64,000 bases of DNA from Hyposmocoma kahamanoa (lineage: Eukaryota; Arthropoda; Insecta; Lepidoptera; Cosmopterigidae), in contig NW_020654229.1 of the NCBI RefSeq assembly GCF_003589595.1, forward strand, positions 4,350,065-4,414,064, given 5' to 3'. Position 1 is the first letter of the stretch. Each line of letters starts with the position of its first letter. A model generated the notes under the pieces. That model was not told the DNA's origin. It did not search any database and saw only the letters and a list, made by a program, of their open reading frames with translations. Both the position numbers and the translations under genes were made by a program. Below, piece by piece: positions 2,225-62,702 of this stretch.

Positions 2225-3065
2225 GTTATTCTGAGACAATAAATGATTTATTTATTTTTATTTAGCCCACAGGTTACACGTGTAAAAAGTAGGCTCTGAA
2301 AAGTGTGAGTTTAACCTCTTTAGAACACCATGCAAACCTGCGAGCAATCATGTTCGCTCGTCGCGATAATGCCCTCCTTTCCCTCTTAATGTCGTCATTG
2401 TCCTTGAGGTCGGGCGCAATTATGTGTCCTAGATATTTAAATTGATATACTCTTTACAAGGATACACTATATGGATATTCAACTTGACAGGTGGTATGTT
2501 ATTAGGAATTTTACCGCCAGCCTCAAAGACATGCCCCTTGTCACACACAAACCATGTCCCTTCGCATATTCCTCGCACATACTGACTAGTTTTTTTAAAC
2601 CGCAGATGGACGCACTCGGCAGCACCATGTCGTCCGCGTAGCTGATTTGTTGATGCATACTCCGTCGATGTGGCAGCCGACATGGGTGCTGCTGAGCGCG
2701 CTGATCAGCCCGTTAACATAGACGTTGAAGAGTGCGAGCGAGGTCAAACCCCCCTGTCTCTCTCCACACTCCAGCGCATATGATTTTGAGAATGATCCTG
2801 TCCATCGAACATTGTTTACCTGGCCTCCGTACCAGTATTTTAAGATATTAATAATTTGGGACGGGACATGTGCATCCATCAGTTTCTTCCGTAGTATGTC
2901 GTAGGAGACCTGGTCGAACGCCCCCGACAGGTCGAGAAAACATGCAAATACACCAGTCTTTCGCCTAATGTAGTAATTAACGGTAGCTCTGATTGCGCTT
3001 TCTGATTTTCTTTTCTTTTCTTTCTTTAGATAGACCCGGTGTAAAGCCTCGATTATTTTTGTCAA
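2225..3065 (-). pseudogene. LINE reverse transcriptase fragment with FADD/YADD core, frameshifted
   Basis: The minus strand encodes the RT palm: FACFLDLSGAFDQVSYDILR, then WTGSFSKSYALECGERQGG and LTSLALFNVYVNGLISALS. After a frameshift near 2640 the catalytic motif ISYADDMVLPSAS continues, followed by LKKLVSMCEEYAKGHG. Stop codons fill the left part. This is a degraded non-LTR retrotransposon RT. The upstream end stops abruptly at about 3065, which suggests 5' truncation. Confidence 0.8.
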
Positions 3066-43400: not shown

Positions 43401-46400
43401 TGGCTGATTGAGTATTAACAATGACCGGAGGTGAGAATGACGCGAGACCGCTGCACGCCGCGCCCAAAAATAGTAATTTTAATGTAACTGAATACTGGCA
43501 ACAGTTGCCATATTGAAAAAAAACGGCCACAAAAAAGTACAAACTTTTTTTTCATTTACATTCCCGCCTTTTTCATTTTCTTTTGTTTTTGTTCAATGTA
43601 GTTTTTTCGCATATGTATTAAAAATACACGTGCGAATTTGTCATTTCACTCGAGACTCGTGAATAATGATAACTACATTTGATACAAGTGCGGATCAAAA
43701 ATAACTATTTTGTATTATTACAGTAAAAGCATCCCTAATACCTTTAAGCAAATATATACGTATATCAAAAATTTTAAAAAGTTGTTAGACTAGACACTAC
43801 CTAAGAAGATTTAGCGTTGGCAACTTGTTAGCCAAGGACAGACCACTATTTCGAGCTGTCTCACGTGACTCGGTTTTTCACTTTTACTTAAAACCCACCT
43901 TAACATAACCCAATAAGGTGTAAATTTGTAATATTGGTATATTGAAGTGAGCGATCCAGTTTATGAAGTATATAAATCCGTGATAGCATGTCATTCGCGC
44001 GCCCGACTGTCAAGTGGTTGGCTGCCGAAGCATCCCGAAGGCTGCCGAGGCATTCCAGAGACTGCCGGCTTGACATCCCTAAGCGTGCCGCAGCCTTAGA
44101 ATAATAACGCATAGAATCATTGACAAAGTCAATGCATAATGGCATGGAATGATAGTTTCATATCAAATGAACTGTCACAAGTGAGGCAAAAATCAAATTC
44201 ATGTAGGCTAGTGTTAGTAGTAGGTAAATTTTCGGTTTTAGTGAATATTTATATAAAAATACAAGTTGAAACGCGTTACTTCCTTGTGGAATGTGATGTT
44301 TGTATCTATTTTATGTTTGTCTGACGTATTTTTACACTCATTTACCGCACATTTCGTCATTTTTAGCTAAAATTCTTGATCTGTTCGCGGTGCAAGTTGA
44401 CCTTGAGCACTGAAGGCCCGCCCGCTCGTGTAGGCCCATTGGGCGCGCTTCAGTTTGCCTCACTTAGCGTGTGCGGACTAGGTTTCTACGCGTTATTATT
44501 CTAAGGCCGCAGCTTCATTTTGCAACTACGATCATTGTCATTAAAATTGCAGCTTTAATGTCATAGTCGTAAGCCCTTCCGCCCCGTGCCATCAGCGAGT
44601 GTCGGGCCTAACACTTTTCAATCTTCCCCAGTCGCTTATGAAATATTTTCCTAATAATAGTAATATAATTTATTTTAGATAAAAAATAATGCATATTTTG
44701 TCAGTATACAATCATAATTCTTATGTAACTAGTGATTACTATACATTTTAATTAAATTATTTTTTTGTTTAATAATATTAGGGGTTAAAGNNNNNNNNNN
44801 NNNNNNNNNNNNNNNNNNNNNNNNNNNNNNNNNNNNNNNNNNNNNNNNNNNNNNNNNNNNNNNNNNNNNNNNNNNNNNNNNNNNNNNNNNNNNNNNNNNN
44901 NNNNNNNNNNNNNNNNNNNNNNNNNNNNNNNNNNNNNNNNNNNNNNNNNNNNNNNNNNNNNNNNNNNNNNNNNNNNNNNNNNNNNNNNNNNNNNNNNNNN
45001 NNNNNNNNNNNNNNNNNNNNNNNNNNNNNNNNNNNNNNNNNNNNNNNNNNNNNNNNNNNNNNNNNNNNNNNNNNNNNNNNNNNNNNNNNNNNNNNNNNNN
45101 NNNNNNNNNNNNNNNNNNNNNNNNNNNNNNNNNNNNNNNNNNNNNNNNNNNNNNNNNNNNNNNNNNNNNNNNNNNNNNNNNNNNNNNNNNTAGATTTTCA
45201 GTACAAATCGGCAATTTCATACTTTAACCCCTATTATCAAGTGACGGGACGAGCTAGTCGTGCGACTGATGGTAAGGTACACGCCTGTCCATAACAGATG
45301 CAGTGCCACTCAGAACTTTAAATTGCAAAGATCTGATGGGCACTGCCACTGTGTGCGTCACCCTTACTCATAAGTTGACAAGTCATAGGAATTATTATCA
45401 CTAGTATCAGGTTTCTTACCACGTTATGACTTCTTTTTATTTTCCCGATATTTTTATGTTTTGTGTGAAAAAAGTGAGTGACAATGGTAACGCCACAACA
45501 AATCGCGATGAAGGTAGTCGTCGACAGCGCAAGAGGGTAGACAGATATGTCTGCTCTTAAAGCTGTCATCTGCCGCCGTCGAGTCAACCCGTGACCATGG
45601 AGGGTGCAACTGTTCCGAAATATCGGGAAAATAAAAAGAAGTCATAATGTGGTAAGAAACCTGATATTAGTGATAATCATTTAGTGAATAACCACGAAAG
45701 TCTTAAGTCATAGGAAGACAAGGAACGCAGTAATGCTGACATTACTGCTTGGCGGCAGAAATAGGTAAGGTGACAGTACTTCCCTGGACGAACTCTTTCA
45801 AAAAGCCTAGTTCTGCGCTTCGACGTGGACAGTGAGATCTTTGACAGTAGTTCAAGGCAATCGAGTCGCCTTCTTAAAGCGTCAAGAAGAGTCTTCATGG
45901 GTACTTTAGGTAAATTAAATCCCCAATCCCAACCACGGCTTATTATACAATGGCACAAGTTTGGTATCCTGACTGCGGCACTAGGAGGCGAAAAATTTTC
46001 TTTCAAATTTTTTATACTAACACTCCATCCGTATTTGTCAACGGTACGTCGTGCCCATAGTTTCTGGAACTTGTATCCATCCGGAACGCGTACCATACGA
46101 ACGGATGACGAGTAGTTCGTGGCCATTGGGTGCACGTACTCCTCTATTGAGTCCTCTGGAAAACAATAAACAATAAATTTTTAAACAGAATTTAGTAAGC
46201 CAAGTAAAACTATAAAATGCGCATTATCTGGTAATGTACACTATTTCACAATCTTTCTCTTTTGCACGCTGTTGCCCGCTTATATCTCCAACGAACAACA
46301 CTACGCCAACTTAATTTTTCTGTTCTGTTTTTATTTTGTTACTTGTTTCTTTGTTTTTTTCACAAAATTCTTTTTTCTTTTTCGAATTTCTTTTTTTGTT

Positions 46401-49400
46401 TCTTTATTTTTTTTTAACAATTCGGGGAGCATAATATTAGTAAACAAATATGACTGTTTACAAAAATAACAGGAAATAACGTAAAAAGTTGGCGTTAGTG
46501 TTCATTGGATCGTATCGTTATGACCTTTGTTCTTACTGCCTCGGATAAGCTGGAAGAGGTCTTTTTTAGAGTCAAATTCACCTTTGCTCACCTTCTGTAC
46601 AATAAATATCTCTTTTGTATTTGTTTAATGCAATAAAGAATATCTATATTAACGTATAACATGTTTTAAATGATCTGGCACATCGCCGTGAGACCGTTTT
46701 GCTAGGATGGTTCTGGTTAGGCGCGGGAGCCCCGGCATAAAGCCGGGGCGGCCGGGCGCCGGCACAAACCCGGCGAGAGGCAAACCGATGGGGTTTAGTG
46801 GGTACACCCCAGGGTCCATGCTAGACCCAGGAGCAGCGCCCTTTTCAGGGCGCCGGGACTCCCACATAACCTCCGAGCCGCCCGGGCTCGGGGGTATCCA
46901 TAAAGGATTCCCCACCGTTACCAAAAAAAAAAGAAAAAAAGATGGTTCTGGTTGAAAATCAAAGGAACCTATCTATGTCTACACAGAGTTCAGAATTCTC
47001 GCCACTCTGTTTTTTTTTATTAAAAATAAATAAATAAAAAAAACAAACGTCCTTTATTTCCAGCTCAATTAATCCATAGGATGTTACTAACGAGATACTT
47101 AAAATTATGTTAGTAAAATAATTGAAAAATGTAACAATATAACTATTTTAATATATTTGCAAAGAAGTTAACGCTGAGGACCGCCGAGTCCATTCTATTT
47201 GTTATCATCTTCAGGATTCCATTGGATGCGGTTTTCTTCAGCATAATCGCGTGGAAATCATCCATATGTGCATCGCCCGAAGCACTACAGAATGCACACA
47301 CTCATACCCCGGCACAAGGGCAACCCTGAGTCGTGGGTGCCATGGACATACATGTAGACAACCGGTAATTACACTCAAACTCACGAGAGAAACAAATGTA
47401 GGCCATAAAAAGATTTTTCCCGGTCCGGGAGTCAAACCCGGAATCTTTGCGTGGCAGAGCAGCATGGTAACCGTTCGTCCACCGAGGCAGTTGTGCATTA
47501 AGTGTAACCAAAGTTATTGTTTTATGTTTGTGTTAGTTATTCTCCGTATGTAAGACTTTCATTATCTGTAAAAAAAAGAAATATATTCATAACCTTACCC
47601 GGAATTGCTAAAAATAAAATTCAATACTCAATACTCAATATATTTATTGCATTCATATGGTAAACATGTCTTAAATTTAAAATAATGCTACACATATGAG
47701 CCCTTTATTAGGGATAACAATAACAGCAGAGGTAGGCCGAGGTTTCAATTATTAATTAAAATTGTTATTTATCAAATAATAATATTAAAAAAAATGTCAT
47801 ATAATAATAAAGAAATACGTCATATTATGAGTAGAATTATGTCACTTGAAAGTTTGAATTTTATTAGGTTACAGTAGCATAACTTCATAGTATATAATTA
47901 ACATTTATTTATTATTCAAATTTATTATAATATTATTTCTTTTATTTGTCATCAAAATATTCATTAAAATTGTAATAGCATTTATTAATAAGATGTAATT
48001 TTAATTTATTTAGAAACAGTGAATACTTTTCCTCGTTTTTAATAATAGGCGGGAGCTCATTGAATATCCTCAACGACATCGAATGGGGACTTGAGCTGTG
48101 TATGTGTAGCCGAGATCGTGGCAGAAGCAATCTATTCCGTGGTCTAAAAGTGTGTCGTTGAGGCAGGTCGTCAGTGTTAGTGTAAAAGTCAGGGTGTTGT
48201 TTAATAAATTTACAAATTTCTAAAATATATATAGAACACAAAGTCAAAATTTTAAATTGTTTAAAGTGCGGTCTGCAGCTATCCGTACTACTCAAATTGC
48301 CAAGAATGCGGATGCATCTTTTCTGGATTGTAAATATTTCTCGTGCGTGCACACTATTTCCCCAAAGGATAATTCCGTAACTTAGGTGGAAATGAGTGTA
48401 AGCATAATAAGCGGCCATTGCAGTTATTAGGTCAGTCGTTTTCTTTATCTCTCTCAATGCGTACGTGAAACTAGACAACTTTTTCTTAATTTTTTGTATA
48501 TGACATTTCCAATTCACATGCGTGTCTATATTTAAACCCGGCAAAGTGAAGCTGTGTACTATTTCTACAGGCGTGTTATTATATGCATAAACTAAGTGTA
48601 GTGGAGTTTTTTGCGGTGGGTGAAATTGCATAATCTTTGTTTTATTTAAATTTATATCCAAGTTATGGTCAGACATCCAGTTTATGACCTCAGTGAAAAC
48701 ATGGTGAAGTTTTGCATTCACGTTGTCGCCGGTACCACATGACATCAAAAGTGAAACATCGTCGGCAAACATGACACAGTGTTCAGAAATAGATTTAGGT
48801 AAGTCATAGATATAGATTAGAAAAAGTAAACATCCAATCCCGCTGCCCTGCGGTATTGAACTTGTCATGTAATGCTGGTCAGATCTAACGTTACGTATTG
48901 TACATGTATTATAGTCAAAAAATTTAAAAATTTTTTCATAAACGTAATTGTACATGTAAATAAAACTATTTATTTTAAACAAACCAACGGTTCGGGCTCT
49001 AAAGTGGCCACACATCGAGTATATAACTTGAAATAGAGACGTATTAAGAGCCTTCCATCCCTGGGCCTGGGCCACTCATCAGGTAAATGGGCCTTATATC
49101 ACTCTCGTTTGCACTGAAATCACAAATTAGACAGCTGAAATAGTATAGCCCCAACAACTGACTTGTGTGTACGTCTCCGTAAATTCCAAAATTATTCAGT
49201 ATTTATTGTAATAAAGACAATATCTCTAACTAATGAGAGGTTGTTCCATTCGGTGGTGTGGGAAAAACAGGAAACATCTTTTTCTTATTTCGTCCTATTT
49301 CTGGTTGTATACTCGATGCCCTAACTCAACCTTTTTTAGTATTCCTCTAATATGTTCATGAGAATAGATCTAAAAGAAAAACACTTACGAGGGACAAGTT

Positions 49401-52400
49401 CTGCAAAAAAAGTACGACATTTTATGTTAATTCATAATAATTTGTTACGTCATCACCGTGAACCTGTATAACACGTCCCACTAGGCACGACGCTTCTCTA
49501 AGGGACTCGAGGACTTCCCAAGTTTTACAAAGATTGTAAACCTTCTTCGACGTAAATAAAAATCAAAATAAATAACAAAACAAAATCACATACGTTGCAC
49601 TGTTCACAAATGGGATAATTTACAAACCTTCCAGAAAAGGACTGTAAGCCTAAAAACCAGCTCAGCTGTTTTTTTTTAAATAGCTATAACTTTGATAAAA
49701 TTCTAGAACGGTTAGGCTACGTAGATTCTTTTCATGCGGATTGATTCTTTTGTTAATAAATGTCACAAAATCTACAATACATTTTATGCGTTTTTTTAAT
49801 TACATAAAATTAGCGGCCGCATTAGTATCCGCTGATGTGTAAAAAGCCTGCATCAGCAACAACCCTGAATCCAAACAACCCGGACCAGTGCCTCTACCAT
49901 AAGTTTACAGAGACAGTTGTCATGTTTACCATACAAAATTGTTAATAACTTTACAGTTTCGTACGGCAAATTACCTATACAGCGTTTCTAGCGGTGACAG
50001 GAAGAAACATATTGTATATAAACATTTTACACGGTCGCTAGCGATAACTGCCACTGTAATCTCATGGTAGAGGCACTGAACCCGTTTAGAAAAGGTTATT
50101 TCCCCAAATTGGACCTTCCGTAAATCGAACGTTCCGTAACCCCCTAATCCAGCACCCACAAAGCAATCTATTGGGCCCACGAGGTCGTGAATTGATCATA
50201 CCAATATTATAAAAAACGGCAATAAAGTAAAAGATAAAATTACCATCACCTGAAAAAATAATTAACAATCATTATAATAATAAACAACAACAATTTGTTC
50301 AAAAATATTATTTTACTGTTTATCTACAGACATATCATAAACCCTCTATGATTTGTTCAAAAACCGCAAATTACGACCAGCTTAAAGATAAACTGTTTTG
50401 TTAGAACAAATTTCTTATCTGTGAAAATGTTATTGTTATTAATACATTCAAATTTCGAACATCTCTGAAAAACAAAACAATTTGACCTCAATTCTAATAT
50501 CAGTCGAGATGAAGTTTTATTCAAAATGAAATGTCAATAGCAAACAATCTTGACAAATTTAACACGTTACTTGATATCGAACGATATGATAGTTGGGGCC
50601 GACTCTAGTTTGTCTATGAATTAAATAAAAACTACGGTTGTATGACACGCATGAGAAAAGTTTTTATTTGCCGCCATTTCGCCAGTCGTAACATGCGGTT
50701 CCTGAACACATCTCAGAGAGCTTATAATATGTGTGTGGATAAAGCAGTGTATGTGACTGTACATAATTAGGCACTAAAACACTCGTGTGATATTAAACCC
50801 ACATTCGTACTTTAAAGCCTTTCATTATGTAACAGTCACAAACTACTATTATTCATTTCATCATCTATCACCTTCTACAGCCTCACTTCACTCACTGTTG
50901 GGTATAGGCCTCCCGAAGTTCCATCACGATCATATAGGGCTAGCATGACAGGGTGCGACTTGCGCGAGAGCGACATAAAGCACGAAATCTTTGTGCGATA
51001 GTTGCAGTATGTCCGCATCCATTGACGCGTACTATTATGGTAAGCTACACGCTTGTCCTTATTAGTTGCAGTGCCCTCGGAGCTTTAAATCGCAAAGATC
51101 TGAGGGGCACTGCCACTGCGCCCGTCCCCCTAAGACATAAGTTGACAAGTCCCGTGTGCCTGTAATTTGACCCTTACCCTTCAAAACCAGAATGCAGTAA
51201 TGCTGACATTACTGCTTGGCGGCAGAAATAGGTGAAGTGGTAGTATCTCTCTGGACGAACTCTTTCACATGGAGCTCTACTGCTGCTATGCCGTCGACCC
51301 GCTTTGCTACTGGGCGTCTGATACTTCTTATGCCCATCCTCGGCCTTCAATCAGGTGGAACAAGACGTTTATACATTGCCATAAATCAGATAACTAAGCC
51401 CCATATAACTTAGACCTTAAGGACTAACATACACGTAATTTAGTACTAAAACTATACAAATAATCTTCACGAACTGCAGCGACACGTGGCGCAATCTAGT
51501 GTCAGGTTAGGGCGCGTCACCATTATGTCGTGACGGCAGATAGTCGTGCAGTTTAAAGTGTCGTGGCATGTATATTTAAATGAAGTTGTTCACACATAGA
51601 ACAACAAGATTAACTGTCGTTCACTACTTTTTGCTAGAATGACAGTCGTCAGACGATAAATAAAACGTTACGGTAAAAATATGACGATAGATAATCGCAG
51701 CTTCAAACGATTCTGTCGTTTGACAAGTCGGCTGCCGTGAACCGATAAATGGTCGTCACAATCTAGTGGGAACAGCTAGATACAACAGTCGTTCAATGAT
51801 AAAATAAACGCCCACGACAGATAGTCGTGATATGGGAACAGGTTAGACGCAACTGTCGACTAACGATAAATAAAATGTTACGACTTAATGGAAACGCACG
51901 CCAACCTGCCTCGGAATCGTCAAAACGCCTCCATCATGCAAATCGACAGACGTTCGGTTGGCACTCTTACAGCAAAATAAAATGCAAAATGCTTTTACTT
52001 ACGTTCATAATCTGCAATTATAAATCAATAAGTCATACCCTTGGTGTAATCAATCAATCATGGACCAATTATTTAGGAGCACTGCTAATTCGCCGTACAA
52101 GACAACGTAATCGGGTATTTAGTACCTGTTGTACGCCAGATATCGCGACCAGTTATAAATAGCTATTTTTGTAGCTACAATAATTTGTTTTACATTGACA
52201 AGGCTGCAATTTATAACAAAGCTACTCTAATTTCCAGTGATAACAAACAAATCAACTAGATGGCGCTTATTTCACAAATCTTTACGGATAGTGCCGGCTA
52301 TTCAGTTTTGTATAGGATTAGCATTACACCCCTTTACATAGTCACACTATAGCACGTGATCAGAAGCGTACAGGATTGTGCGCGGGAAAGCCTGCACGCA

Positions 52401-58400: not shown

Positions 58401-61400
58401 GATTTTTTATCCTTGAACGACTGTCGTGACTAGCTGTTCACGACAGCCTCCTTGCCCATCTCTGGCTACGACCCAACGCTACAACAAAGCGAGCAGAGGG
58501 GAGGGCAGGGAGCAGAATACTTGCGGACAGCGATAAATAAAACGTGACGACAATAGAAGCTGCGACAATCTGTCGTCACGTTTTTATCGCGACGTTGTTT
58601 ATCGTCAGACGACTGTCGTTCTAGCTGTTTCCACTGTGACGACAGTTTGTCGTTGTAACGATAAAAATCGTGAATGACAGTTAATCGTGTCGTGCTGTAT
58701 GCGAACAACTTCATTTAAATATACAAGCCATGACACTGTAAACTGCACGACAATCTGTCATCACGACATAGTGGGAACGCGCCCTGACCGTCAATGTGCG
58801 GAGCGTGGCGCGGTATCTAAAGCTAGGGAGGGGCGGAGAGTGTCCATTCTCGTTATTTTTTGTTCTCTGCTAACACGCATGCCACGTTAATAGCAGGCCG
58901 CATTCCTGGTCGAGATAGCCATTCTGAAGCAGTCCCTAGAGTTCGACTCCTCGACTGTATTTTTTTGTGTGTATATTACGCGGTTACTCCGATTGATTTG
59001 CGAACAGATTTTGATGATTCTTTTTTGTTGGAAAGAGAGTACCTCAGTATTGGTCCCATTTAAATTTTAAGATAATATTCCATCTCTTAGCACGTTAAGC
59101 GCGCTGCATCCGAGACTATAAAAATCTAGAAAACTCGGACCGACTTCGGTTGTCGCTTGTGCACTAAGTCCCATTCGAATCCAAGAAAATACGAACATCG
59201 CTTGTACACCTAGAGATAAAATGGTCCCTGTGACATTTCGGACTGTCATTTCTCGGACTCGGAACTGGGGGTCTACACTCGATCTCCGCCCGATATCCGT
59301 CCGAAACAATTGCTGCCAAATAAGCAATATTTGACAAATGAAAAGACGCGTGATGCGAATGAAGCTTCATATTTGCTACTTGTCTTTTAATTTTGTCAAA
59401 TATTACTTATTTGACAGCATTGACTTACAAATAAATGGACGACGAGTCTAATACAAAAACCACGAAAAAAATGTCCCAAGTCAATCTATTTAAACGTAGT
59501 GACATGTAAAGGAATATGAAAAAGCTGAAACGTTGAATTTAAATTGTAATGTCATCGCAGTACTGTCTAATTTTGCTTGCTTCGCTGTCAGTCGAACAAA
59601 CGAAGACTAAAGCGTGAATGACGCTCTGTATACGATTTTAACGCCCTATAAGTTCGGACACTTTTTAGCGCGGACCCGACGTCCATATAATTGTAAGTCA
59701 ATGTTTGACAGTAATTGTTTCGGACGGATGTCAGACGGAGATCGAGAGTAGATCCCCTGATACGAATCGGACGTAGAGCCTTAGGACGTTTATTAAGTTT
59801 CACCCACTTTCCTTTAACCGATGTCAATAAAACTTGGCAAATAGATGTAATTCCACAAACTTCTGAGGTCGGTATAAAAAAAACTTACGCCAAAGTTCGT
59901 TAGCATACATGGCCTGATCAGGTGACGGAAGGCTGTAGATATATCCAATTTGACAAGGGTTCCAATGGTCACAAACCTCGTGGTCGGGGTCCAGCTCGGT
60001 TACATACTTGTAGGTCTGAAGAAAGCACACGAAGATTGTCAGTTCAAATAAGTTGTGCACCTGGTGCCATGCGACACACCTACCCACATCGAGTATATAA
60101 CCAAAAATAGAGACGAAATGTCATTTAATTTGTTAGAAAACTATTCTGTCAAATCGTTACGGTGACAACTGCGCTCCGATTGACCAGCCCGATTTCGAAA
60201 CAATTGACGGGGGTCGTCAATTGTTTCACTTCAAATCGACCAGTTTAAAAATAAAAAAATTACATAATTAATATTTAATTACCGAAATGTGTTTCAGTAT
60301 GTTTTGTAATTTGATTTTTTGCTGTCCACACCACCGAATGAAACAGCCCCCCATTGTTAGAGACATTATCTTTATTACAATAAATACAGAATATTTTTGG
60401 AATATACGGAAGACGTACACACGGATCAGGGGTCTACTCTCGATCTCCGTCCGAAACAATTACTGCCAAATAAGCATTATTTGACCAAATGAAAAGACGC
60501 GTGACGCGAATGAAGCTTCATTCTTCATACTTGTCTTTTAATTTTGTCGAATATTACTTATTTGACAGTAATTGTTTCGGACGGATGTCGGACGGACATC
60601 GAGAGTAGACCCCCAGTTGTTGACGCTGTACTATTTCAGTGCAAACGAGAGTTGATATTTAAAAGTGATGTAAGGCCCATTCGCCTGATGAGTTGCCAGG
60701 GATAGATGGCCCTTATTTCGTCTCTATTTCTGGATATATACTCGATGCCTACCCATGACAGTAGCGCTGCCAATAAGAGCTTTAATCGCAAAGATCTGAG
60801 GGGCACTGTCACTATCACGGAAGATAAATACAATGGAAGTGCCTTAAGCATCGCTTACTACCAGTGTTAACTCTGCGTTTTCTGCGTCTAGGTTTACCTT
60901 TGCAAGTTACAAGAAGCCCGTACGGGTACGGAGCACGCTTCGCTCGCAGTCGAAGGCGGGCAAAAACTGCGCAAAATAACTGCGCTTATGAGAATTGTTT
61001 TTTCATTTTCATGTTTTAGGAATGTGGATTCCTTCCATAAAACAAAAAGAAAATAAGAAAACACACAACACAGTTTTTGCACGATTTAATCTTCAATGAG
61101 TTGGTGGTGCAATAGGAGATCCCGAACGCTAACCGCGACGCCTCCAAAGAGCCTGCATAGCTAACATAACCATACGTCCAGCTTTTAAACTTCTTGTCCC
61201 GCTCTATCCCCAAAATACTTAACAATGAACTCAGCCCACTAGACAACACAGATTACTTTTTCAATATTTCATAATTAAACATTCTTAATTTAGTAAGTCC
61301 GTTACGCTCAAATCACACAGGTGCAGTTCATCTCCATTTTCCCATTATTAAGGTATAAACATGTGTCATGCAATTACGCGATATACGACGCGCGGCTTCG

Positions 61401-62702
61401 CTTTCCCCTTCTGTAGTTCAAAACGACGCGACGCGACGCTTCGACTCTGCACCAGTGTGAGTTGAGCCTAACTATCTCGCGGCGCAAGCCAAGTAAATGG
61501 GCTATTGATTCCCAATATCATTTCACCCAGCACCATTTGCACCCAAATTTCCGATCACAGGGGAGATTGTATAACCGTAGTCTATTTCGATCCCGTACCC
61601 GCTAGATGGCGTCAGGGTATTACACCCTGGCGCTACATTGGCATGCGCCGGCGCTCCGTCCATAAAACTATATTAAAAATAATTATTAATACAAAGATCA
61701 AACGCTAATTTATTTTATTTATTTCAGATTACAAAAGACCAAGAAAAAATTCCTTCGATCCGGCCGTATACGAAGCTAAGTGAAGAAAAGCTTTCATAGA
61801 TTTCTCAGAGATGGCGCTGACGACAAAAAGTCGTTAAAAACCGGAAACAAAGACCTGCGCAGTCAAATCGGCATCGACCCGATCGGGTAGTCTCGAAATC
61901 AGATGGGTTTCCGAGCGAGAAGTTGAGTCTGATTCTTACTATGTCTTTCTAATTTGTGAGTTAAATCAGGTATTGTTCCAATTAGAAATGTCAAAAGTTT
62001 CCGACCGGCCAGTTGTGAATCGCAATTATGGGCCTCGACTCGGAAGAGACGCAGTTTCCGATCGGGAGAGGCAATCAAAATTAAGCTGATAGCTGTTCGT
62101 ACGGTACGCCAAATCATGACTTTACTTAGTTAACATAGCGTCTGTCACGGTTTACCGGAAGACATTGGTTCGAATCCAGCCGAATCAAAGGATTTCTTCT
62201 TAATGTTCGACCTTTGTATTAATAATTATTACACACTAGTCATTGACTTACAATTATATGGACGTCGGGTCCGCGCTAAAAAGTGTCCGCACTTGTAAGG
62301 CGCTAAAATCGTATACAGAGCGCGACACTCCGCTTTAGTCTTCATTTGTTCTACTGACAGCGCGATACTGCGATGACATTACAATTTAAATTTCGAATAG
62401 GTTGACTTGGGACCTTTTTTTCGTGGTTTTTGTATTAGACCCGTCGTCCATTTATTTGTAAGTCAATGACACTAGTGGAGTAATTTCACAAAAAATAATT
62501 TAATATCATGGTGTTAAAAGTTATGATAAAAATAATGAAATAATCACCCTGTCAGGATAATATCGGTAATGAACAACGACATCGTCTGTGTCTTCCAGGG
62601 CGCATTTCGTTGCAGTGTAATTCAAAGATGTCCGCTCGATGGGTGCACATCCTATTACCATTGTTCCGTTATGAGGAAGGTCGGGACCTTCTATTCTGTG
62701 TC
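16262..62702 (-). CDS. Gene B, whole model: modular secreted protein with 14 microexons (5' end outside window)
   Basis: Twenty-nine inferred exons read from high to low coordinates: 62702-62548, 60015-59889, seven microexons, 46155-45905, 42829-42655, 40385-40205, a microexon, 39209-39091, four microexons, 33941-33761, 32240-32155, two microexons, 27253-27153, 25738-25633, 24875-24760, 20981-20827, 19435-19343, 18196-18168, 16443-16262. The lengths sum to 2165 nt: 2 nt finishing a split codon plus exactly 721 codons including the stop, with no internal stop. The protein consists of five or six beta-rich units with close cysteine pairs (YRCPRC, FECQEC, YDCKDC, GPCGSC), then a run of 17 glycines and an acidic tail ending DVPAGDETTPAE. 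The phase-1 unit boundaries are typical of shuffled extracellular modules. I do not recognise the family; an Ig-like fold is an inference from the spacing of Cys and of the DYGDFYA-type strand. Signal peptide and promoter would lie beyond 64000. Splice sites are by eye only. Confidence 0.75.
16470..16740. mobile_element. MITE in gene B intron
   Basis: GCAAATCCGCGTATGTAG at the left and CTTACGCGGATTTGC at the right form imperfect inverted ends. The interior is non-coding. Confidence 0.5.
17180..17300 (-). repeat. tRNA-headed SINE fragment
   Basis: On the minus strand an A-box-like GATCGAGTGGCTTGC is followed by a B-box-like GGTCCCGGATTCGATCC. The cloverleaf is degenerate, so it is a SINE head, not a tRNA gene. 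Confidence 0.5.
18168..18196 (-). CDS. Gene B small exon (29 nt), CVCC motif
   Basis: Acceptor tatcatatttcag, donor AAG|gtaaaa; phase 2 in, phase 1 out. It encodes ADEDDCVCCE. Confidence 0.75.
18648..18880 (+). repeat. SINE-like GGCAG repeat, copy
   Basis: Contains GACATAAGTTGACAAATCCC and ACTGCTTGGCGGCAGAAATA. Confidence 0.8.
19195..19300 (-). repeat. tRNA-headed SINE fragment
   Basis: The complement holds CCTCGGGGGCCGAACGTTACCA and CCCGGACTGGG, matching the heads at 20341-20585 and 47265-47495, but decayed. Confidence 0.5.
19343..19435 (-). CDS. Gene B exon: unit 6, second part
   Basis: Acceptor aaataattttag, donor AGC|gtaagt; phase 2 in and out. It encodes RVTSFMEHFEGMIQAEFELG and GEQYTKNIMEI. 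HFEGMIQAEFELGGEQ parallels DYGDFYALIQNADGVEE of unit 3. Confidence 0.85.
20341..20805 (-). repeat. Two tRNA-headed SINEs in tandem
   Basis: Copies at about 20341-20585 and 20630-20805. On the minus strand each starts with a tRNA-like head (TGCCTCCGTGGTCCAACGGT with a GGTTCGATTCCCAGG B box in the first). Each then contains TTTATTTC and GGCACCCGCGACACAGGG-type blocks and ends in an ATT-rich tail (TTATTATTATTATT in the first). A third copy is at 21480-21640 and a fourth at 47265-47495. Confidence 0.75.
20827..20981 (-). CDS. Gene B exon: unit 6, first part (CGSC)
   Basis: Acceptor caaggatag, donor AAG|gtaaga; phase 0 in, phase 2 out. It encodes SEPVLPDNFGGEEIVPVHSD, then ATGDGEMDEGLGPCGSCPMM and YFVITIEIIII. 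The CGSC pair followed by beta strands matches units 3-5. Confidence 0.8.
21480..21640 (-). repeat. tRNA-headed SINE, head partly lost
   Basis: Same body as the pair at 20341-20805 (CACACACTCAACTTAG, GTGCCATGGACACACATAGA). The tRNA-like head is truncated. Confidence 0.65.
22780..24240 (-). pseudogene. Degraded Jockey-like LINE RT fragments
   Basis: Minus-strand pieces such as RMRRYFTPGQ, LQPVHDRDLTSSG and FGRVLNATCEM recall the VRRYFTPGQRLxLYKxQVRPHMEYCSHLW region and tail of Jockey RTs, spread over several frames. The blocks at 23060-23280 and 23900-24190 are similar, so the region may hold two overlapping copies. It is inactive. It shares CAGCTGAAGCAACTGTC with the fragment at 12000-12600. 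Confidence 0.55.
24760..24875 (-). CDS. Gene B exon: glycine-rich segment
   Basis: Phase 1 in, phase 0 out; donor GAG|gtaacg. It encodes TGRCTNGQ, a run of 17 glycines, then YTGGEERGGEIDLE. The acceptor (ggggagtag) lacks a pyrimidine tract, so the left junction is the weakest of the model. The Gly frame is chosen because its phases fit both neighbours; another frame (Ala/Val/Glu-rich) is also open but does not fit. Confidence 0.65.
25633..25738 (-). CDS. Gene B exon: unit 5, second part
   Basis: Acceptor aatattctag, donor CCA|gtaagt; phase 0 in, phase 1 out. It encodes VTLNGSPLPSVKQARRQAGN and VHITININGGSGGCP. The dibasic ARRQ is a possible processing site. Confidence 0.8.
25792..26205. mobile_element. 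MITE with CACACGG...GCGCCGAC ends, containing a SINE
   Basis: The left end TTATTTTATACGCGCCGAC and right end GTCGGCGCGTATAAAATA are inverted. A minus-oriented GGCAG-family SINE piece (about 25820-25940) is nested inside. It lies in the intron next to the 25633-25738 exon. Confidence 0.75.
27153..27253 (-). CDS. Gene B exon: unit 5, first part (CKDC)
   Basis: Acceptor gtgtttaccag, donor AAG|gtatcg; phase 1 in, phase 0 out. It encodes DLKLPKIKTVPPPTIGEPFQ and KGVKYDCKDCQINK. A Pro-rich linker precedes the YDCKDC pair. Confidence 0.8.
27305..27800 (+). repeat. GGCAG-family SINE plus tRNA-like SINE remnant
   Basis: 27305-27570 holds ACAAGTCGTGCGCCTGGTGG, GACATAAGTTGACAAGTCC and CTGCTTGGCACCAG. 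27680-27790 contains the B-box complement GAAATCGAACCCGGGACC of a tRNA-like head on the minus strand. Confidence 0.7.
28369..28374 (-). CDS. Gene B microexon 14 (6 nt)
   Basis: aactcacctttcag|ATCCGG|gtaagt. Phase 1 on both sides; adds H-P before DLKLPKI. Confidence 0.6.
28750..29013. mobile_element. MITE, CAGCTGTGAAACCAGCC family, copy 2
   Basis: Ends GGTTGGTTTCTGAGCAGTGC and CAGCTGTGAAACCAGCC. It is the uninterrupted relative of 4141-4585. Confidence 0.75.
29152..29157 (-). CDS. Gene B microexon 13 (6 nt)
   Basis: tttttttgttttttag|CCGACC|gtaagt. Phase 1 on both sides; adds A-D. It lies just 30 bases outside the 2.4-kb foldback element. Confidence 0.65.
29187..31604. mobile_element. Foldback-type element with very long inverted arms
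   Basis: Outer ends AGGCTTGATTCATATCGCGT (left) and the complement of AGGATTGATTCATATCGCGT (right). The left arm (29187 to about 30000) can be followed inverted in the right arm (about 30890-31604) through TAGACGCTACGCGACGC, GTGTAACTTAGGTTCTCAACAATAAGG, GGTCGTGTTTAA and GGTTTCATTACCGGTAGAAC. About 870 bp of unrelated sequence forms the loop. The arms contain tRNA-like B-box segments (GGTTCGATTCCCGGTAG). No transposase frame was seen. Confidence 0.75.
31657..31865 (+). repeat. Dispersed AACCGACTT-family repeat, 3'-truncated
   Basis: Begins TTTTTAACCTACTTTAAAAA and contains GGGGATGAATCTGATCTCGC and AAAACTTGGCCAATAAATG. Confidence 0.7.
31857..32114 (+). CDS. Open frame of unknown origin, possibly repeat-derived
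   Basis: An 85-codon frame reading VVMWDSHSVKTRIFAYPAWP, then RHLRSTAPLALVRHYGPTFE and a C terminus RTLIQWMTKPRPSPP before a stop and AATAAA. It is GC-richer than its surroundings. It starts inside a dispersed repeat and lies in an intron of gene B on the other strand. I do not recognise it; it may be the tail of a mobile element. Confidence 0.25.
   Translation: MANKWGIAVVMWDSHSVKTRIFAYPAWPRHLRSTAPLALVRHYGPTFEGLYRSPSIVNGMLGILGMPTNPRTLIQWMTKPRPSPP
32155..32240 (-). CDS. Gene B exon: unit 4, second part
   Basis: Acceptor ttatttctgtccacag, donor AGG|gtatgt; phase 2 in, phase 1 out. It encodes FENNDACVYSGLFVIGDSLI and NKVIMVTE. It occupies the place and phase of the 39091-39209 exon in unit 3. 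It was found by asking what must follow the preceding exon, and it restored the frame. Confidence 0.8.
32450..33060. repeat. GGCAG-family SINE copies (one minus, one plus)
   Basis: 32450-32535 is the minus-oriented end of the repeat (TCCAGGGAAGTACTGCCACC). 32790-33060 is a plus-oriented copy with ACTGCTTGGCGCCAGAAATA. Between them, about 32690-32760 is shared in inverted orientation with 49620-49690. Confidence 0.75.
33405..33625 (+). repeat. Dispersed repeat, copy 1
   Basis: GAACGATATGATAGTTGGGG ... AGTCGTAACATGCGGTTCCT ... GAGAGCTTATAATATG. Copy 2 lies at 50568-50790 in the same orientation, about 90% identical by eye. No coding sequence seen. Confidence 0.8.
33761..33941 (-). CDS. Gene B exon: unit 4, first part (CQEC)
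   Basis: Acceptor ttaattatttcag; donor AAG|gttaaa, phase 1 in, phase 2 out. It encodes IKLKASTQSLRLGENFDKSV, then TFECQECELTDVTCNGHSAI and EAGKVVVVAVSKTIQFHFP. It corresponds to the 40205-40385 exon in length (181 nt in both), phase and cysteine pattern. Without splicing the frame continues to a TAG at about 33720, an alternative end. Confidence 0.8.
33990..35600. other. Intron sequence without recognised feature
   Basis: AT-rich. 34910-34990 shares GCTGAAAAACAGCGCTGC with 2085-2110, a faint repeat. A run of about 24 A lies at 35524-35547. Confidence 0.4.
35617..35622 (-). CDS. Gene B microexon 12 (6 nt)
   Basis: acaactttacag|AAAAGC|gtaagt. Phase 1 on both sides; adds E-K, and Q with the next exon. 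Microexons 10 and 12 differ only in the last base, which suggests local exon duplication. Confidence 0.65.
35716..35721 (-). CDS. Gene B microexon 11 (6 nt)
   Basis: gatttcttctcag|ATACCG|gtaagt. Phase 1 on both sides; adds D-T. The introns on both sides are only 78 and 93 bases. Confidence 0.65.
35800..35805 (-). CDS. Gene B microexon 10 (6 nt)
   Basis: tgttctctattccag|AAAAGG|gtaatt. Phase 1 on both sides; adds E-K. Confidence 0.6.
37152..37157 (-). CDS. Gene B microexon 9 (6 nt)
   Basis: aaccttattccag|CACCTG|gtaagt. Phase 1 on both sides; adds T-P. Confidence 0.65.
38499..38994. mobile_element. hAT-like MITE, CATCGAGTATATAACCAG family, copy 1
   Basis: The terminal inverted repeats of about 33 bp read CATCGAATATATAACCAGAA and TTCTGGTTATATACTCGATG. 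Flanks GTGATGAT (left) and GTGACGAT (right) look like a slightly decayed 8-bp duplication. The interior includes GAATTCGGGCTGGCCAGTCG. Confidence 0.85.
39091..39209 (-). CDS. Gene B exon: unit 3, second part
   Basis: Acceptor cattttattttcag, donor AAA|gtaagt; phase 2 in, phase 1 out. It encodes RQVLEIQLWFLKPVDYGDFY and ALIQNADGVEERVKLLSLQ. The KPVDYGDFYALIQNADG pattern resembles the F strand and following hairpin of an Ig-like fold. Confidence 0.85.
39544..39555 (-). CDS. Gene B microexon 8 (12 nt)
   Basis: gtaatttttag|GAGTGGAAAACC|gtaagt. Phase 2 on both sides, matching the flanking exons; adds S-G-K-P between VIDR and RQVLEIQ. It is the only microexon inside a unit. Confidence 0.6.
40205..40385 (-). 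CDS. Gene B exon: unit 3, first part (CPRC)
   Basis: Acceptor ttttttaccag, donor CAG|gtgagt; phase 1 in, phase 2 out. It encodes LPATAFVQVQKLMLASKKVN, then STSVPYRCPRCHLQGIMVRP and PDGFVRNVDPSKYKLKDVID. The YRCPRC pair is the unit hallmark. Confidence 0.85.
40764..41295. mobile_element. hAT-like MITE, CATCGAGTATATAACCAG family, copy 2
   Basis: Same ends and interior as 38499-38994. It abuts the LINE tail at 41300. Confidence 0.85.
41300..41805 (+). pseudogene. LINE 3'-terminal fragment
   Basis: Reads RILHGYIWPFVMYGSDAWTM, then RLDAFEMW, KRKITYLGHVLRHD and LFRLVLGKDKFAILMPNLQ across stops and frameshifts. This is the typical tail of insect LINE ORF2 proteins (YGSEAWT ... RLEAFEMW ... LGHVLR). 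Confidence 0.75.
42380..42570 (-). repeat. tRNA-headed SINE, second family
   Basis: The minus strand shows CCCGTAGCTCTGTTAGGAGA (A box), GCTGGTTCGAATTC (B box), GCCGGATCGAAGGAAT, then TGTTCGATCTTTGCATTAAT at the 3' end. Relatives lie at 61660-61790, 62130-62235 and 63290-63405. Confidence 0.7.
42655..42829 (-). CDS. Gene B exon: unit 2, second part
   Basis: Acceptor cattccgcag, donor TAC|gtaagt; phase 0 in, phase 1 out. It encodes PEVNRFRVKSRVHKGDKFIT, then VGIRFPEQWSDFFYSTFYAV and FAKGGRRSSTKTIKFLII. The segment DFFYSTFYAVFAKGG resembles DYGDFYALIQNADG of unit 3, which suggests repeated domains. Confidence 0.8.
43985..44060. repeat. Short imperfect tandem repeat
   Basis: Units of the type GGCTGCCGAAGCATCCCGAA follow each other about three times with changes. 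Confidence 0.5.
44088..44513. mobile_element. Element with GCAGCCTTAGAATAATAACGC inverted ends
   Basis: The left end GCCGCAGCCTTAGAATAATA (44088-) and right end TATTATTCTAAGGCCGCAGC (-44513) are inverted. The interior also contains paired CAAGTGAGGCAAA and TTTGCCTCACTT. No coding sequence recognised. Confidence 0.7.
44791..45190. other. Assembly gap (400 N) inside an inverted-repeat element
   Basis: Exactly 400 N. The flanks are AATATTAGGGGTTAAAG (left) and CTTTAACCCCTATTAT (right), which are complementary, so the gap hides the middle of a palindromic or TIR element. The true size is unknown. Confidence 0.9.
45238..45830 (+). repeat. GGCAG-family SINE interrupted by a palindromic insertion
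   Basis: The SINE parts are 45238-45390 and 45705-45830. The insertion (45391-45704) is flanked by an 11-bp duplication AAGTCATAGGA. The SINE's right end reaches the coding frame of the 45905-46155 exon of gene B. Confidence 0.8.
45391..45704. mobile_element. Insertion with arms of about 60 bp and an 11-bp target duplication
   Basis: Arms begin ATTATCACTAGTATCAGGTT (45394) and close CTGATATTAGTGATAAT (45677), and include TTTATTTTCCCGATATTT and its complement. The core has CCGTGACCATGG and CCGAAATATCGGG, similar to the core of the hairpin at 57003-57176. Target duplication AAGTCATAGGA at 45380-45390 and 45705-45715. The class is unknown. Confidence 0.8.
45905..46155 (-). CDS. Gene B exon: unit 2, first part
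   Basis: Acceptor ttgttttccag; phase 1 in. It encodes DSIEEYVHPMATNYSSSVRM, then VRVPDGYKFQKLWARRTVDK, YGWSVSIKNLKENFSPPSAA and VRIPNLCHCIISRGWDWGFN. A CHC cysteine pair is present. The 3' end is uncertain. The donor after LPK (AAA|gtaccc, phase 0) fits the next exon but is weak. The frame stays open to about 45790, where SINE sequence begins, so a later donor (AGA|gttcgt at the SINE edge) is also possible. Confidence 0.7.
46719..46940 (+). mobile_element. GC-rich retroposon with poly(A) and 13-bp target duplication
   Basis: The body is GC-rich (GCCCCGGCATAAAGCCGGGG, then GCCGCCCGGGCTCGGGGG) and ends in a poly(A) run with one G interruption. The duplication GATGGTTCTGGTT lies at 46706-46718 and 46941-46953. 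It looks like a LINE 3' UTR fragment or a SINE inserted by target-primed reverse transcription, and young judging by the perfect duplication. Confidence 0.85.
47265..47495 (-). repeat. tRNA-headed SINE, family 1
   Basis: On the minus strand the head TGCCTCGGTGGACGAACGGT (A box) and GGTTTGACTCCCGG (B box) are clear, followed by the body with GGCACCCACGACTCAGGG. Confidence 0.75.
47599..47607 (-). CDS. Gene B microexon 7 (9 nt)
   Basis: gaattttatttttag|CAATTCCGG|gtaagg. Phase 1 on both sides; adds P-I-P and gives E as first residue of the next exon. Its acceptor tract lies only about 20 bases from the 3' end of the LINE at 47628-49012. Confidence 0.65.
47628..49012 (-). CDS. LINE reverse transcriptase fragment, open for about 340 codons
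   Basis: This is a 5'-truncated RT of Jockey/CR1 type on the minus strand, with intact frame to the stop at 47942. Motifs: SSIPQGSGIGCLLFLIYIYD (palm), FADDVSLLMSC (FADD active site), NLDINLNKTKIMQFHPP, VNWKCHIQKIKKKLSSFTYA and LSYGIILWGNS. It reverse-transcribes element RNA at nicked DNA. The endonuclease domain and ORF1 are missing. The first 30 or so residues of the open frame come from the adjoining MITE (49013-49318), not from the LINE. The 3' end is a short run of ATTGAGT-like repeats at about 47628-47650. The long open frame suggests a fairly recent insertion. Confidence 0.85.
49013..49318. mobile_element. hAT-like MITE, CATCGAGTATATAACCAG family, copy 3
   Basis: Ends CATCGAGTATATAACTTGAA and TTCTGGTTGTATACTCGATG. 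Internally shortened relative to copies 1 and 2. It adjoins the LINE 5' truncation point. Confidence 0.85.
49389..49400 (-). CDS. Gene B microexon 6 (12 nt)
   Basis: ctttttttgcag|AACTTGTCCCTC|gtaagt. Phase 1 on both sides; adds E-L-V-P. Confidence 0.7.
49886..50081. mobile_element. MITE, CAGTGCCTCTACCAT family
   Basis: Ends CAGTGCCTCTACCATAAGTT and ATCTCATGGTAGAGGCACTG. The interior has GACAGTTGTCA and CGCTAGCGATAACTG. Diverged relatives lie at 54595-54740 and 54940-55020. Confidence 0.8.
50095..50195 (-). repeat. tRNA-like SINE remnant
   Basis: The complement contains GACCTCGTGGGCCCAATAGA and a degraded B box GTTCGATTTACGGAAGG, like the remnant at 27680-27790. Confidence 0.45.
50244..50249 (-). 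CDS. Gene B microexon 5 (6 nt)
   Basis: taattattttttcag|GTGATG|gtaatt. Phase 1 on both sides; adds R-D. The donor is slightly weaker than its neighbours. Confidence 0.6.
50568..50790 (+). repeat. Dispersed repeat, copy 2
   Basis: Matches 33405-33625 almost base for base over about 220 bases. Confidence 0.8.
51035..51300 (+). repeat. GGCAG-family SINE copy
   Basis: Contains GACATAAGTTGACAAGTCCC and ACTGCTTGGCGGCAGAAATA, ending TCTTTCACATGGAGCTCTAC. Confidence 0.85.
51509..51902. mobile_element. MITE, AGGGCGCG family, copy 2
   Basis: Begins AGGGCGCGTCACCATTATGT. The right end ATGGAAACGCACGCC is decayed. The interior has the family's ACGATAAATAAAACGTTACG and GTCGTTTGACA blocks. Confidence 0.75.
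52003..52011 (-). CDS. Gene B microexon 4 (9 nt)
   Basis: tttataattgcag|ATTATGAAC|gtaagt. Phase 1 on both sides; adds D-Y-E. Confidence 0.65.
52476..52685. mobile_element. hAT-like MITE, CATCGAGTATATAACCAG family, copy 4 (short)
   Basis: Both ends are well kept (CATCGAGTATATAACCAGAA, TTCTGGTTATATACTCGATG), but the middle has a large internal deletion. The length is 210 bp. Confidence 0.85.
53919..53927 (-). CDS. Gene B microexon 3 (9 nt)
   Basis: tttttctttatag|ACTTTGGTG|gtaagt. Phase 1 on both sides; adds N-F-G after microexon 2 (D-F-G if microexon 2 is skipped). Confidence 0.7.
53975..54165 (+). repeat. GGCAG-family SINE, 3'-truncated
   Basis: Begins GACGAACAAGTCGTGCGCCT and stops after the CCCTTCAAAACCGG block. 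It starts about 45 bases from gene B microexon 3. Confidence 0.75.
54448..54453 (-). CDS. Gene B microexon 2 (6 nt)
   Basis: ccttaatgtttcag|TTGAGA|gtaagtt. Phase 1 on both sides; adds V-E. Confidence 0.65.
55092..55375 (+). repeat. GGCAG-family SINE, full copy
   Basis: From ATCAAGTGACGGGACGAATG to CATGGAGCTCTACTGCTACT, with all internal blocks. Confidence 0.85.
55756..56226 (+). mobile_element. Solo LTR with 5-bp target duplication
   Basis: Begins TGTTACGGACGGCCG and ends GTCACCAACA (TG...CA). GTGAT lies on both sides (55751-55755 and 56227-56231). A TATA-like AATTTATAGAG is at about 55845 and an AATAAA at about 56118, as expected of an LTR with its own promoter and poly(A) site. No internal retroviral-type region adjoins it, so it is a solo LTR left by recombination. 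The superfamily cannot be told from the LTR. Confidence 0.85.
56312..56480. repeat. 79-bp tandem duplication ending in a long palindrome
   Basis: Two copies of TACCCTTCAAAACCGAAATA ... TGCTTGAATATGCCAATTTA follow each other. Each contains the hairpin TTGAATATGCCAAT / ATTGGCATATTCAA. In the second copy the palindrome extends through AGCAGTAATATGGGCAT, forming about 30-bp arms. The unit is derived from the CCCTTCAAAACC part of the GGCAG SINE. Confidence 0.8.
56920..56928 (-). CDS. Gene B microexon 1 (9 nt)
   Basis: ctttttgttacag|GTGGTTATG|gtgagtt. Phase 1 on both sides; it adds R-G-Y (first residue completed by the upstream exon). Confidence 0.7.
57003..57176. mobile_element. Hairpin element with perfect 37-bp arms
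   Basis: Arms CATAGGAAATGAAACTATTT ... GGATTTAAATCGC and their exact complement. The core has GACCTCAGTCAACCGTGACC and GACCCGAAACGTCGG. The core resembles that of 45391-45704. It is not coding. The perfect arms point to recent origin or ongoing correction between arms. Confidence 0.75.
57365..57550 (+). pseudogene. DUF4817-like helix-turn-helix fragment
   Basis: Reads MHYFYVVAHGNGHEAARRYH, then PDRYSDHRVFTNTTPRTLH. It fits the pattern of insect DUF4817 domains (DMHxxYGxAxGNxREAxRLYxERFPxRxxPDHRxFxxxHxxL), found in transposon-like and retrogene sequences. Downstream sequence is degenerate. The overlapping open frames on the minus strand are probably shadows. It lies in a gene B intron in antisense orientation. 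Confidence 0.5.
58309..58785. mobile_element. MITE, AGGGCGCG family, copy 3
   Basis: Full-length, with ends AGGGCGCGTTCCCACTATGT and its complement. TCAATGTG precedes it and GTCAATGTG occurs four bases after it, which suggests an 8-bp duplication with a small terminal change. Confidence 0.85.
59278..59756. mobile_element. Harbinger-like MITE, copy 2, containing a hAT-like MITE
   Basis: Ends GGGGTCTACACTCGATCTCC and GATCGAGAGTAGATCCC. CTG duplicates at 59275-59277 and 59757-59759. The body matches 4159-4338 and is split at 59417/59704. Confidence 0.85.
59418..59703. mobile_element. hAT-like MITE, CATTGACTTAC family, copy 2
   Basis: Perfect 8-bp duplication TTTGACAG at 59410-59417 and 59704-59711. 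Ends CATTGACTTACAAATAAATG and GTAAGTCAATG. Confidence 0.9.
59889..60015 (-). CDS. Gene B exon: unit 1, second half
   Basis: Acceptor gctttcttcag, donor GGC|gtaagt; phase 0 in, phase 1 out. It encodes TYKYVTELDPDHEVCDHWNP, then CQIGYIYSLPSPDQAMYANE and LW. It has two cysteines seven residues apart. It is followed by the first microexon cassette. Confidence 0.8.
60087..60747. mobile_element. hAT-like MITE, CATCGAGTATATAACCAG family, copy 5
   Basis: Inverted relative to copy 1. Perfect 8-bp duplication CCTACCCA at 60079-60086 and 60748-60755. It contains a Harbinger-like MITE at 60430-60613. Confidence 0.9.
60430..60613. mobile_element. Harbinger-like MITE, copy 3
   Basis: Ends GGGTCTACTCTCGATCTCCG and GAGAGTAGACCCC. 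CAG duplicates at 60427-60429 and 60614-60616. Confidence 0.85.
61660..61790 (-). repeat. tRNA-headed SINE, second family, 3' half
   Basis: Contains AATACAAAGATCAAACGCTA and AAATTCCTTCGATCCGGCC, the complement of the 3' part of the SINE at 42380-42570. Confidence 0.55.
62130..62535 (+). repeat. tRNA-headed SINE (second family) interrupted by a hAT-like MITE
   Basis: ATTGGTTCGAATCCAGCCGA (B box), then TGTTCGACCTTTGTATTAAT. The MITE at 62241-62468 is inserted just behind it. Confidence 0.6.
62241..62468. mobile_element. hAT-like MITE, CATTGACTTAC family, copy 3
   Basis: Perfect 8-bp duplication ACACTAGT at 62233-62240 and 62469-62476. It lies only 80 bases from the donor of the 62548-62702 exon of gene B. 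Confidence 0.9.
62548..62702 (-). CDS. Gene B exon: unit 1, first half
   Basis: Acceptor tttcacag, donor AGG|gtgatt; phase 1 in, phase 0 out. It encodes HRIEGPDLPHNGTMVIGCAP, then IERTSLNYTATKCALEDTDD and VVVHYRYYPDR, with two N-glycosylation sequons and two cysteines. It is the most 5' exon found. Nothing convincing lies between 62703 and the window edge, so earlier exons must be outside. Confidence 0.75.

What the first reader, a model, noticed from the sequence alone, without database searches (positions are those of the whole stretch)
46155..60015. Seven consecutive 6-12-nt microexons encode one 20-residue linker
Between the exons ending at 59889 and starting at 46155 lie seven candidate microexons (56920-56928, 54448-54453, 53919-53927, 52003-52011, 50244-50249, 49389-49400, 47599-47607). 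Each sits between a good pyrimidine-AG acceptor and a GTAAGT-like donor. Each has a length divisible by three and phase 1 on both sides. Joined, they read GYVENFGDYERD followed by ELVPPIPE and run into DSIEEYVHP. Sixty coding bases are spread over 13.7 kb of transposon-rich intron. Microexon-rich secreted proteins are known in schistosomes (MEG genes) and aphids (bicycle genes); I know of no lepidopteran case like this.
Basis: partly seen in the sequence, partly recalled or inferred. Interest (0 to 1): 0.92.

Follow-up and report, generated by a model that had tools for sequence, protein, structure and literature searches.

The report
Moth gene with microexon-built linkers
A moth gene appears to write the short connectors between parts of its protein with strings of exons only 6 to 12 letters long, any of which could be skipped without breaking the protein; standard gene annotation loses the gene at this point, and the layout could let one gene make many linker variants.

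Summary
All seven microexons are at the stated places, and their number exceeds all 150 shuffles at each of five thresholds. The flanking exons are real: ten database proteins match, all nine named ones from Lepidoptera. One, from Pectinophora gossypiella, crosses the gap and matches exon 46155-46022 and three further exons. It reads ELWRDEDAIEEF there; of 128 subsets of the seven, microexon 50249-50244 alone reproduces this best. Eight other sequences reach the exon before the gap and leave homology there.

A second run, six 6-nt microexons (37157-28369), lies downstream. Both runs border a beta-rich part of the protein (low-confidence model), so they probably encode linkers with optional pieces: 128 of 128 and 64 of 64 subsets are stop-free. 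This would work like the mini-exon 'adjustable linker' of PTP-delta. The layout meets one published working definition of a micro-exon gene, but only 8% of the modelled coding sequence is microexonic. Unproven: splicing itself (no RNA data), secretion, function. No protein found contains the full 20-residue linker.

The parts
62548..62702 (-). exon HRIEGPDLPHNG...YYPDR
   Evidence: tblastn of homologs, 80% to P0010; splice sites
59889..60015 (-). exon TYKYVTELDPDH...ANELW, last exon before the first microexon run
   Evidence: tblastn of homologs, 86% to P0010
56920..56928 (-). microexon m1, GTGGTTATG
   Evidence: splice sites, phase
54448..54453 (-). microexon m2, TTGAGA
   Evidence: splice sites, phase
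53919..53927 (-). microexon m3, ACTTTGGTG
   Evidence: splice sites, phase
52003..52011 (-). microexon m4, ATTATGAAC
   Evidence: splice sites, phase
50244..50249 (-). microexon m5, GTGATG
   Evidence: splice sites, phase; alone reproduces RDE of P0010, best of 128 subsets
49389..49400 (-). microexon m6, AACTTGTCCCTC
   Evidence: splice sites, phase
47599..47607 (-). microexon m7, CAATTCCGG
   Evidence: splice sites, phase; weakest acceptor of the seven
46022..46155 (-). exon EDSIEEYVHP...KYGWS after the first run; donor GTTAGT
   Evidence: 62% to P0010
42655..42829 (-). exon PEVNRFRVKS...KFLII
   Evidence: 43% to P0010; splice sites
40205..40385 (-). exon PATAFVQVQK...KDVID
   Evidence: 72% to P0010 over 40329-40213; splice sites
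39544..39555 (-). doubtful 12-nt candidate m8 (another phase)
   Evidence: splice sites; absent from P0010, which fits the direct join
39091..39209 (-). exon RQVLEIQLWF...LLSLQ before the second run
   Evidence: 59% to P0010
37152..37157 (-). microexon m9, CACCTG
   Evidence: splice sites; with its donor read through gives TPGK, close to APGK at the end of P0010
35800..35805 (-). microexon m10, AAAAGG
   Evidence: splice sites, phase only
35716..35721 (-). microexon m11, ATACCG
   Evidence: splice sites, phase only
35617..35622 (-). microexon m12, AAAAGC
   Evidence: splice sites, phase only
29152..29157 (-). microexon m13, CCGACC
   Evidence: splice sites, phase only
28369..28374 (-). microexon m14, ATCCGG
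   Evidence: splice sites, phase only
27153..27253 (-). predicted exon LKLPKIKTVPPP...CQINK after the second run
   Evidence: acceptor and phase; weak donor; no homolog seen
25633..25738 (-). predicted exon VTLNGSPLPS...GGSGGCP
   Evidence: strong sites, phase fits; no homolog seen

Best explanation
The finding is part of a real lepidopteran gene on the minus strand in which two stretches of the protein, one before and one after a beta-rich part, are each encoded by a run of tiny phase-1 exons: seven of 6-12 nt, then six of 6 nt. Shown: the sequence features, the excess over chance, and the flanking exons by homology. Inferred: the microexons are spliced into mRNA, singly or in groups. Since each is a multiple of three and all share one phase, any subset keeps the frame, so splicing can set length and charge of each linker without touching the folded parts. 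The working model is an adjustable linker: including more microexons spaces or re-orients the parts on either side and so changes what the protein binds. That most of the seven are real exons I hold at about 0.9; the confidence below is for the whole statement, with optional inclusion.
For: 14 3n candidates in 28.3-59.9 kb against 1.7 expected from the rest of both strands. Exons on both sides and three more confirmed by P0010. P0010 reads RDE at the gap, as m5 alone would give (score 70, next 57 of 128 subsets), and ends APGK, as m9 with its donor read through would nearly give. 128 of 128 and 64 of 64 subsets are stop-free. Eight other sequences reach this exon and diverge right after ELWR, six of eight with K or E next, as a GTRAG donor read through would give (inference).
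Against: No RNA data. None of the ten proteins holds the 20-residue linker, and P0010 fits only one of seven and one of six microexons; candidate lengths were limited in those searches. P0010 is a predicted protein whose DNA I did not see; a shifted acceptor could also give its two extra residues. The expected background leaves one or two false candidates among 14. At the strictest threshold the downstream interval has one candidate, reached by 6 of 150 shuffles. The structure model is weak (mean pLDDT 43), so 'linker between domains' is uncertain.
Confidence: 0.6

Rival explanations
1. The microexons are real but constitutive: each linker has one fixed sequence, and its division into tiny exons is a by-product of the gene's history with no regulatory role.
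For: All seven have good splice sites and the joined linker is one sensible open peptide. The homologs that lack it could simply be mis-annotated, since eight of them lose the gene at this exon.
Against: P0010 crosses the gap with only two extra residues, which m5 alone explains. All microexons keep one phase, which constitutive exons would not need.
Confidence: 0.22
2. Only m5, and perhaps m9, are real; the others are chance splice-like sites, and the mature linker is as short as in Pectinophora.
For: P0010 supports only these two. Similar candidates occur elsewhere in the locus: 19 3n ones in the rest of both strands.
Against: The interval has more 3n candidates than any of 150 shuffles at five thresholds, and the background predicts about 1.7 in 31.6 kb against 14 seen.
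Confidence: 0.1
3. The microexons serve RNA processing: stepping stones for removing long introns piece by piece, with the added residues incidental.
For: 18 of 20 modelled introns are 0.5-6.5 kb and one holds a retrotransposon ORF.
Against: Two introns of the second run are only 78 and 93 nt, and the gene has introns of 2-3 kb with no microexon in the model. 13 of 13 modelled microexons are 3n and keep the frame open.
Confidence: 0.05

Closest known systems
LAR-RPTP (PTP-delta) mini-exon peptides meA and meB
   Same: Very short optional peptides in an extracellular protein; meB (four residues) lies between Ig2 and Ig3 and was described as an adjustable linker, meA3 and meA6 can combine in tandem (PMC4423211, passages).
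   Different: Two sites there, two runs of seven and six exons here. No Ig or phosphatase family match here.
Flatworm micro-exon genes (MEG)
   Same: Runs of exons divisible by three; skipping keeps the frame; RNA-seq and gene finding often miss them (PMC7653826, passages).
   Different: MEGs were described with about 80% of coding sequence in 6-36 bp symmetric exons and as secreted or membrane-anchored almost without exception (PMC5825161, passages); here 8% of the modelled coding sequence, secretion unknown.
Aphid bicycle genes
   Same: Many small internal exons, nearly all starting at codon position 2 (PMC9168663, passages), as do the 13 modelled microexons here.
   Different: Bicycle genes diverge fast; here the exons before the run are 66-89% identical to the homologs over the part covered. 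No non-lepidopteran homolog was among the ten hits.
Fasciclin I of insects
   Same: Insect adhesion protein with alternatively spliced microexons (one introductory sentence of PMC8831610).
   Different: Not compared by sequence. Run length of its microexons not seen by me.
Fly neural microexons (eMIC-dependent)
   Same: Very short in-frame exons.
   Different: Those have median length 31 nt, weak 3' sites, UGC motifs and short introns (PMC8797185, passages); here 6-12 nt, TGC near the acceptor in 2 of 14 and CTAAY in 1 of 14, 18 of 20 introns over 0.5 kb.

Membership tests
Micro-exon gene (working definition of PMC7653826) | At least seven exons | tested here: met
   21 exons in the predicted model; a prediction, not cDNA
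Micro-exon gene (working definition of PMC7653826) | At least half of exons under 70 nt and divisible by three | tested here: met
   13 of 21 in the model; 14 of 23 with the two upstream exons of 90 and 39 nt. Exons not found at both ends and in an unread stretch are not counted
[quoted passage not shown]
   Runs of seven and six in the model
Schistosome MEG (as described in PMC5825161) | About 80% of coding sequence in 6-36 bp symmetric exons | tested here: not met
   96 of 1194 nt, 8%
Schistosome MEG (as described in PMC5825161) | Secreted or membrane-anchored | not tested
   First exon not found
Schistosome MEG (as described in PMC5825161) | Protein variants by alternative splicing | not testable with these tools
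   No RNA data; only P0010 with one of seven
Aphid bicycle genes | Internal exons start at codon position 2 | tested here: inconclusive
   13 of 13 modelled microexons do; of the larger internal exons, several start in other phases
Aphid bicycle genes | CYC motifs | not tested
   No motif search was run
Fly eMIC microexons | UGC motif near the 3' splice site and strong CUAAY branch site | tested here: not met
   2 of 14 and 1 of 14
Immunoglobulin-superfamily adhesion receptors (LAR-RPTP-like) | Ig or Fn3 domains | tested here: inconclusive

The most novel reading that the evidence does not exclude
A gene kept across Lepidoptera in which each linker between folded units is its own run of optional, phase-matched microexons, giving a combinatorial linker code (up to 128 x 64 in-frame isoforms from the two runs seen) that annotation pipelines lose across the order.
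Probability: 0.35. Interest if true: 0.87.

Novelty: new variant of a known kind. Interest (0 to 1): 0.72.

Why it matters
If spliced as predicted, this is a microexon-run gene in moths and butterflies whose tiny exons are confined to two stretches of a well-conserved protein instead of making up a fast-evolving effector. It would be a clean system for asking how 6-nt exons are recognised at all, and whether linker length can be tuned exon by exon. It also shows a concrete annotation failure: the records from Ostrinia, Chilo, Leptidea, Papilio, Amyelois, Zerene and one of two from Operophtera leave homology at the same exon, so other such genes may be truncated in public databases.

Tried and rejected
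Chance: rejected for the runs as a whole, not for each microexon. m8 (39555-39544): doubted, since P0010 fits the direct join. Candidates 33540-33511, 32735-32727, 32509-32504, 30658-30650 and 49599-49594 were left out of the model for weak sites or lack of support. ORF 6887-8302 as last exon of this gene: set aside by eye, because its upstream end reads like the start of a separate gene. Tandem duplication as origin of the microexons: no clear support; the three high flank scores come from overlapping windows, and the next (35) lies above the 99% level (30) but below the maximum (55) of the random pairs. Shared intronic motifs: only A/T-rich k-mers and a few of low count, uncorrected for multiple testing. 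Fold of the N-terminal part: model useless, mean pLDDT 36. No fold family is claimed. Alignment A3 misplaced the short exon rows and was not used. Exons beyond 25633: none convincing. NCAM muscle-specific mini-exons, recalled as a parallel, not confirmed: 0 papers. A printed lepidopteran case: none recognised in the listings (8 papers, one looked into; 4 papers; 12 of 3,806 shown, the word microexon in none of the 12), nor; the library lacks most subscription papers. The pattern was an arbitrary back-translation, so its zero matches mean nothing.

Full report
Observation. In the frame of the exon ending at 59889 they read GYVENFGDYERDELVPPIP and continue into EDSIEEYVHP; of the other two frames one has stops and one is open.

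Chance. I scanned for exons of 3-15 nt between scored acceptors and donors, with a simple score of my own. With thresholds set at the weakest of the seven, 28.3-59.9 kb of the minus strand holds 17 candidates, 14 of them 3n; 1.7 3n and 1.8 other are expected from the rest of both strands. The downstream interval exceeds all 150 shuffles at four thresholds; at the strictest one candidate is left and 6 of 150 shuffles reach it. One or two of the 14 may be false; m8 at 39555-39544 is the likeliest.

Is the gene real? A search with 157 joined residues gave 9 proteins of 15 candidates; eight are named, all lepidopteran (Ostrinia, Chilo, Leptidea, Operophtera twice, Papilio, Amyelois, Zerene), and one is an unnamed contig ORF. 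Eight of the nine reach ...ELWR; P0008 ends earlier. After ELWR the eight run on for 1 to about 50 residues without similarity to the linker or to exon 46155, the next residue being K, E, M or N. A donor C|GTRAG read through would give R-K or R-E, seen in six of eight; I infer that gene finders did not find the next exon. A search with the linker and exon 46155, for candidates of about 150-480 residues, found none at E up to 1 (3 candidates).

After exons 42829-42655, 40385-40205 and 39209-39091 had been found by splice sites and phase, a third search, for candidates of about 220-710 residues, gave one hit among 372 candidates: P0010, uncharacterized LOC126379676 of Pectinophora gossypiella, 427 residues. 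tblastn of P0010 against the locus matches 46156-46022 at 62%, 42829-42656 at 43%, 40329-40213 at 72% and 39211-39074 at 59%. So the exon after the first run and three beyond it are confirmed by homology.

What P0010 says about the microexons. At the gap it reads ANELWRDEDAIEEF. Of all 128 subsets of the seven placed between the two window exons, m5 (GTGATG) alone gives ANELWRDEDSIEEY, score 70; the next score 57. P0010 ends QAPGKNN; m9 with its donor read through gives QTPGKY, closer than the other five of the second run, while plain read-through of exon 39091 gives QSKFHN. Against: P0010 is a predicted protein, I could not see its DNA, and a shifted acceptor could also give two extra residues. 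No protein found in the three searches holds the full linker.

Gene model. 21 exons from 62702 to 25633, 1194 nt, 13 of them microexons with 96 nt, m8 not counted. Two upstream exons, 72523-72434 and 69799-69761 in window numbering, match homologs. Exons 27253-27153 and 25738-25633 and microexons m10-m14 rest on splice sites and phase alone. Neither end of the gene was found.

Mechanism. Shown: any subset of run 1 (128 of 128) and run 2 (64 of 64) keeps the frame without a stop. Inferred: microexons are optional, and splicing sets linker length and charge. The nearest working parallel is PTP-delta, whose four-residue meB between Ig2 and Ig3 was described as an adjustable linker (PMC4423211, passages). 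Rivals are constitutive inclusion, chance for most of the seven, and a role in stepwise intron removal; the last is weakened by introns of 78 and 93 nt in the second run.

Comparison. By the working definition in a tapeworm genome paper (PMC7653826, passages) the predicted model qualifies as a micro-exon gene; by the description of schistosome MEGs as about 80% microexonic (PMC5825161, passages) it does not. With bicycle genes it shares microexons starting at codon position 2 (PMC9168663, passages), not their fast divergence. It lacks the signals of fly eMIC microexons (PMC8797185, passages). Fasciclin I is an insect adhesion protein with alternative microexons, seen in one sentence (PMC8831610).

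Verdict. A very probably real and unusual gene structure, with the surrounding gene kept in Lepidoptera; best called a new variant of a known kind. Whether the microexon runs themselves are conserved beyond m5 and m9 is open, and the decisive evidence, cDNA, is missing.

Noticed in passing
6887-8302 (-): 471-residue ORF with three similar segments (...IQLHM / LQLHM...); no Pfam match. Upstream sequence looks by eye like the end of a signal peptide, so perhaps a separate gene.
   Followed up: partly
47942-49075 (-) and 2595-3065 (-): Reverse transcriptase fragments (RVT_1); the first lies inside the microexon interval, between m6 and m7.
   Followed up: partly
P0004 and P0008 (Operophtera brumata records): Two homologs carry names of a chloroplast ribosomal protein and of FtsH in public records, which do not fit their sequence family.
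   Followed up: no
P0009 (Zerene cesonia record): Holds other residues (RERLIHYEGKPRKLDRLHGTV) where the other models have the HKVEGPDLP...YYPDR exon: alternative exon or model error.
   Followed up: no
33511-33540 (-): A 30-nt phase-1 candidate exon (TACYDWRNS) inside the second run; splice sites fair, no homolog seen.
   Followed up: partly
28369-56928 (-): The 120-nt flanks of the 14 microexon candidates are AT-richer than the interval (mean GC 0.30 against 0.36; window SD 0.08), as if islands of old intron survive.
   Followed up: partly
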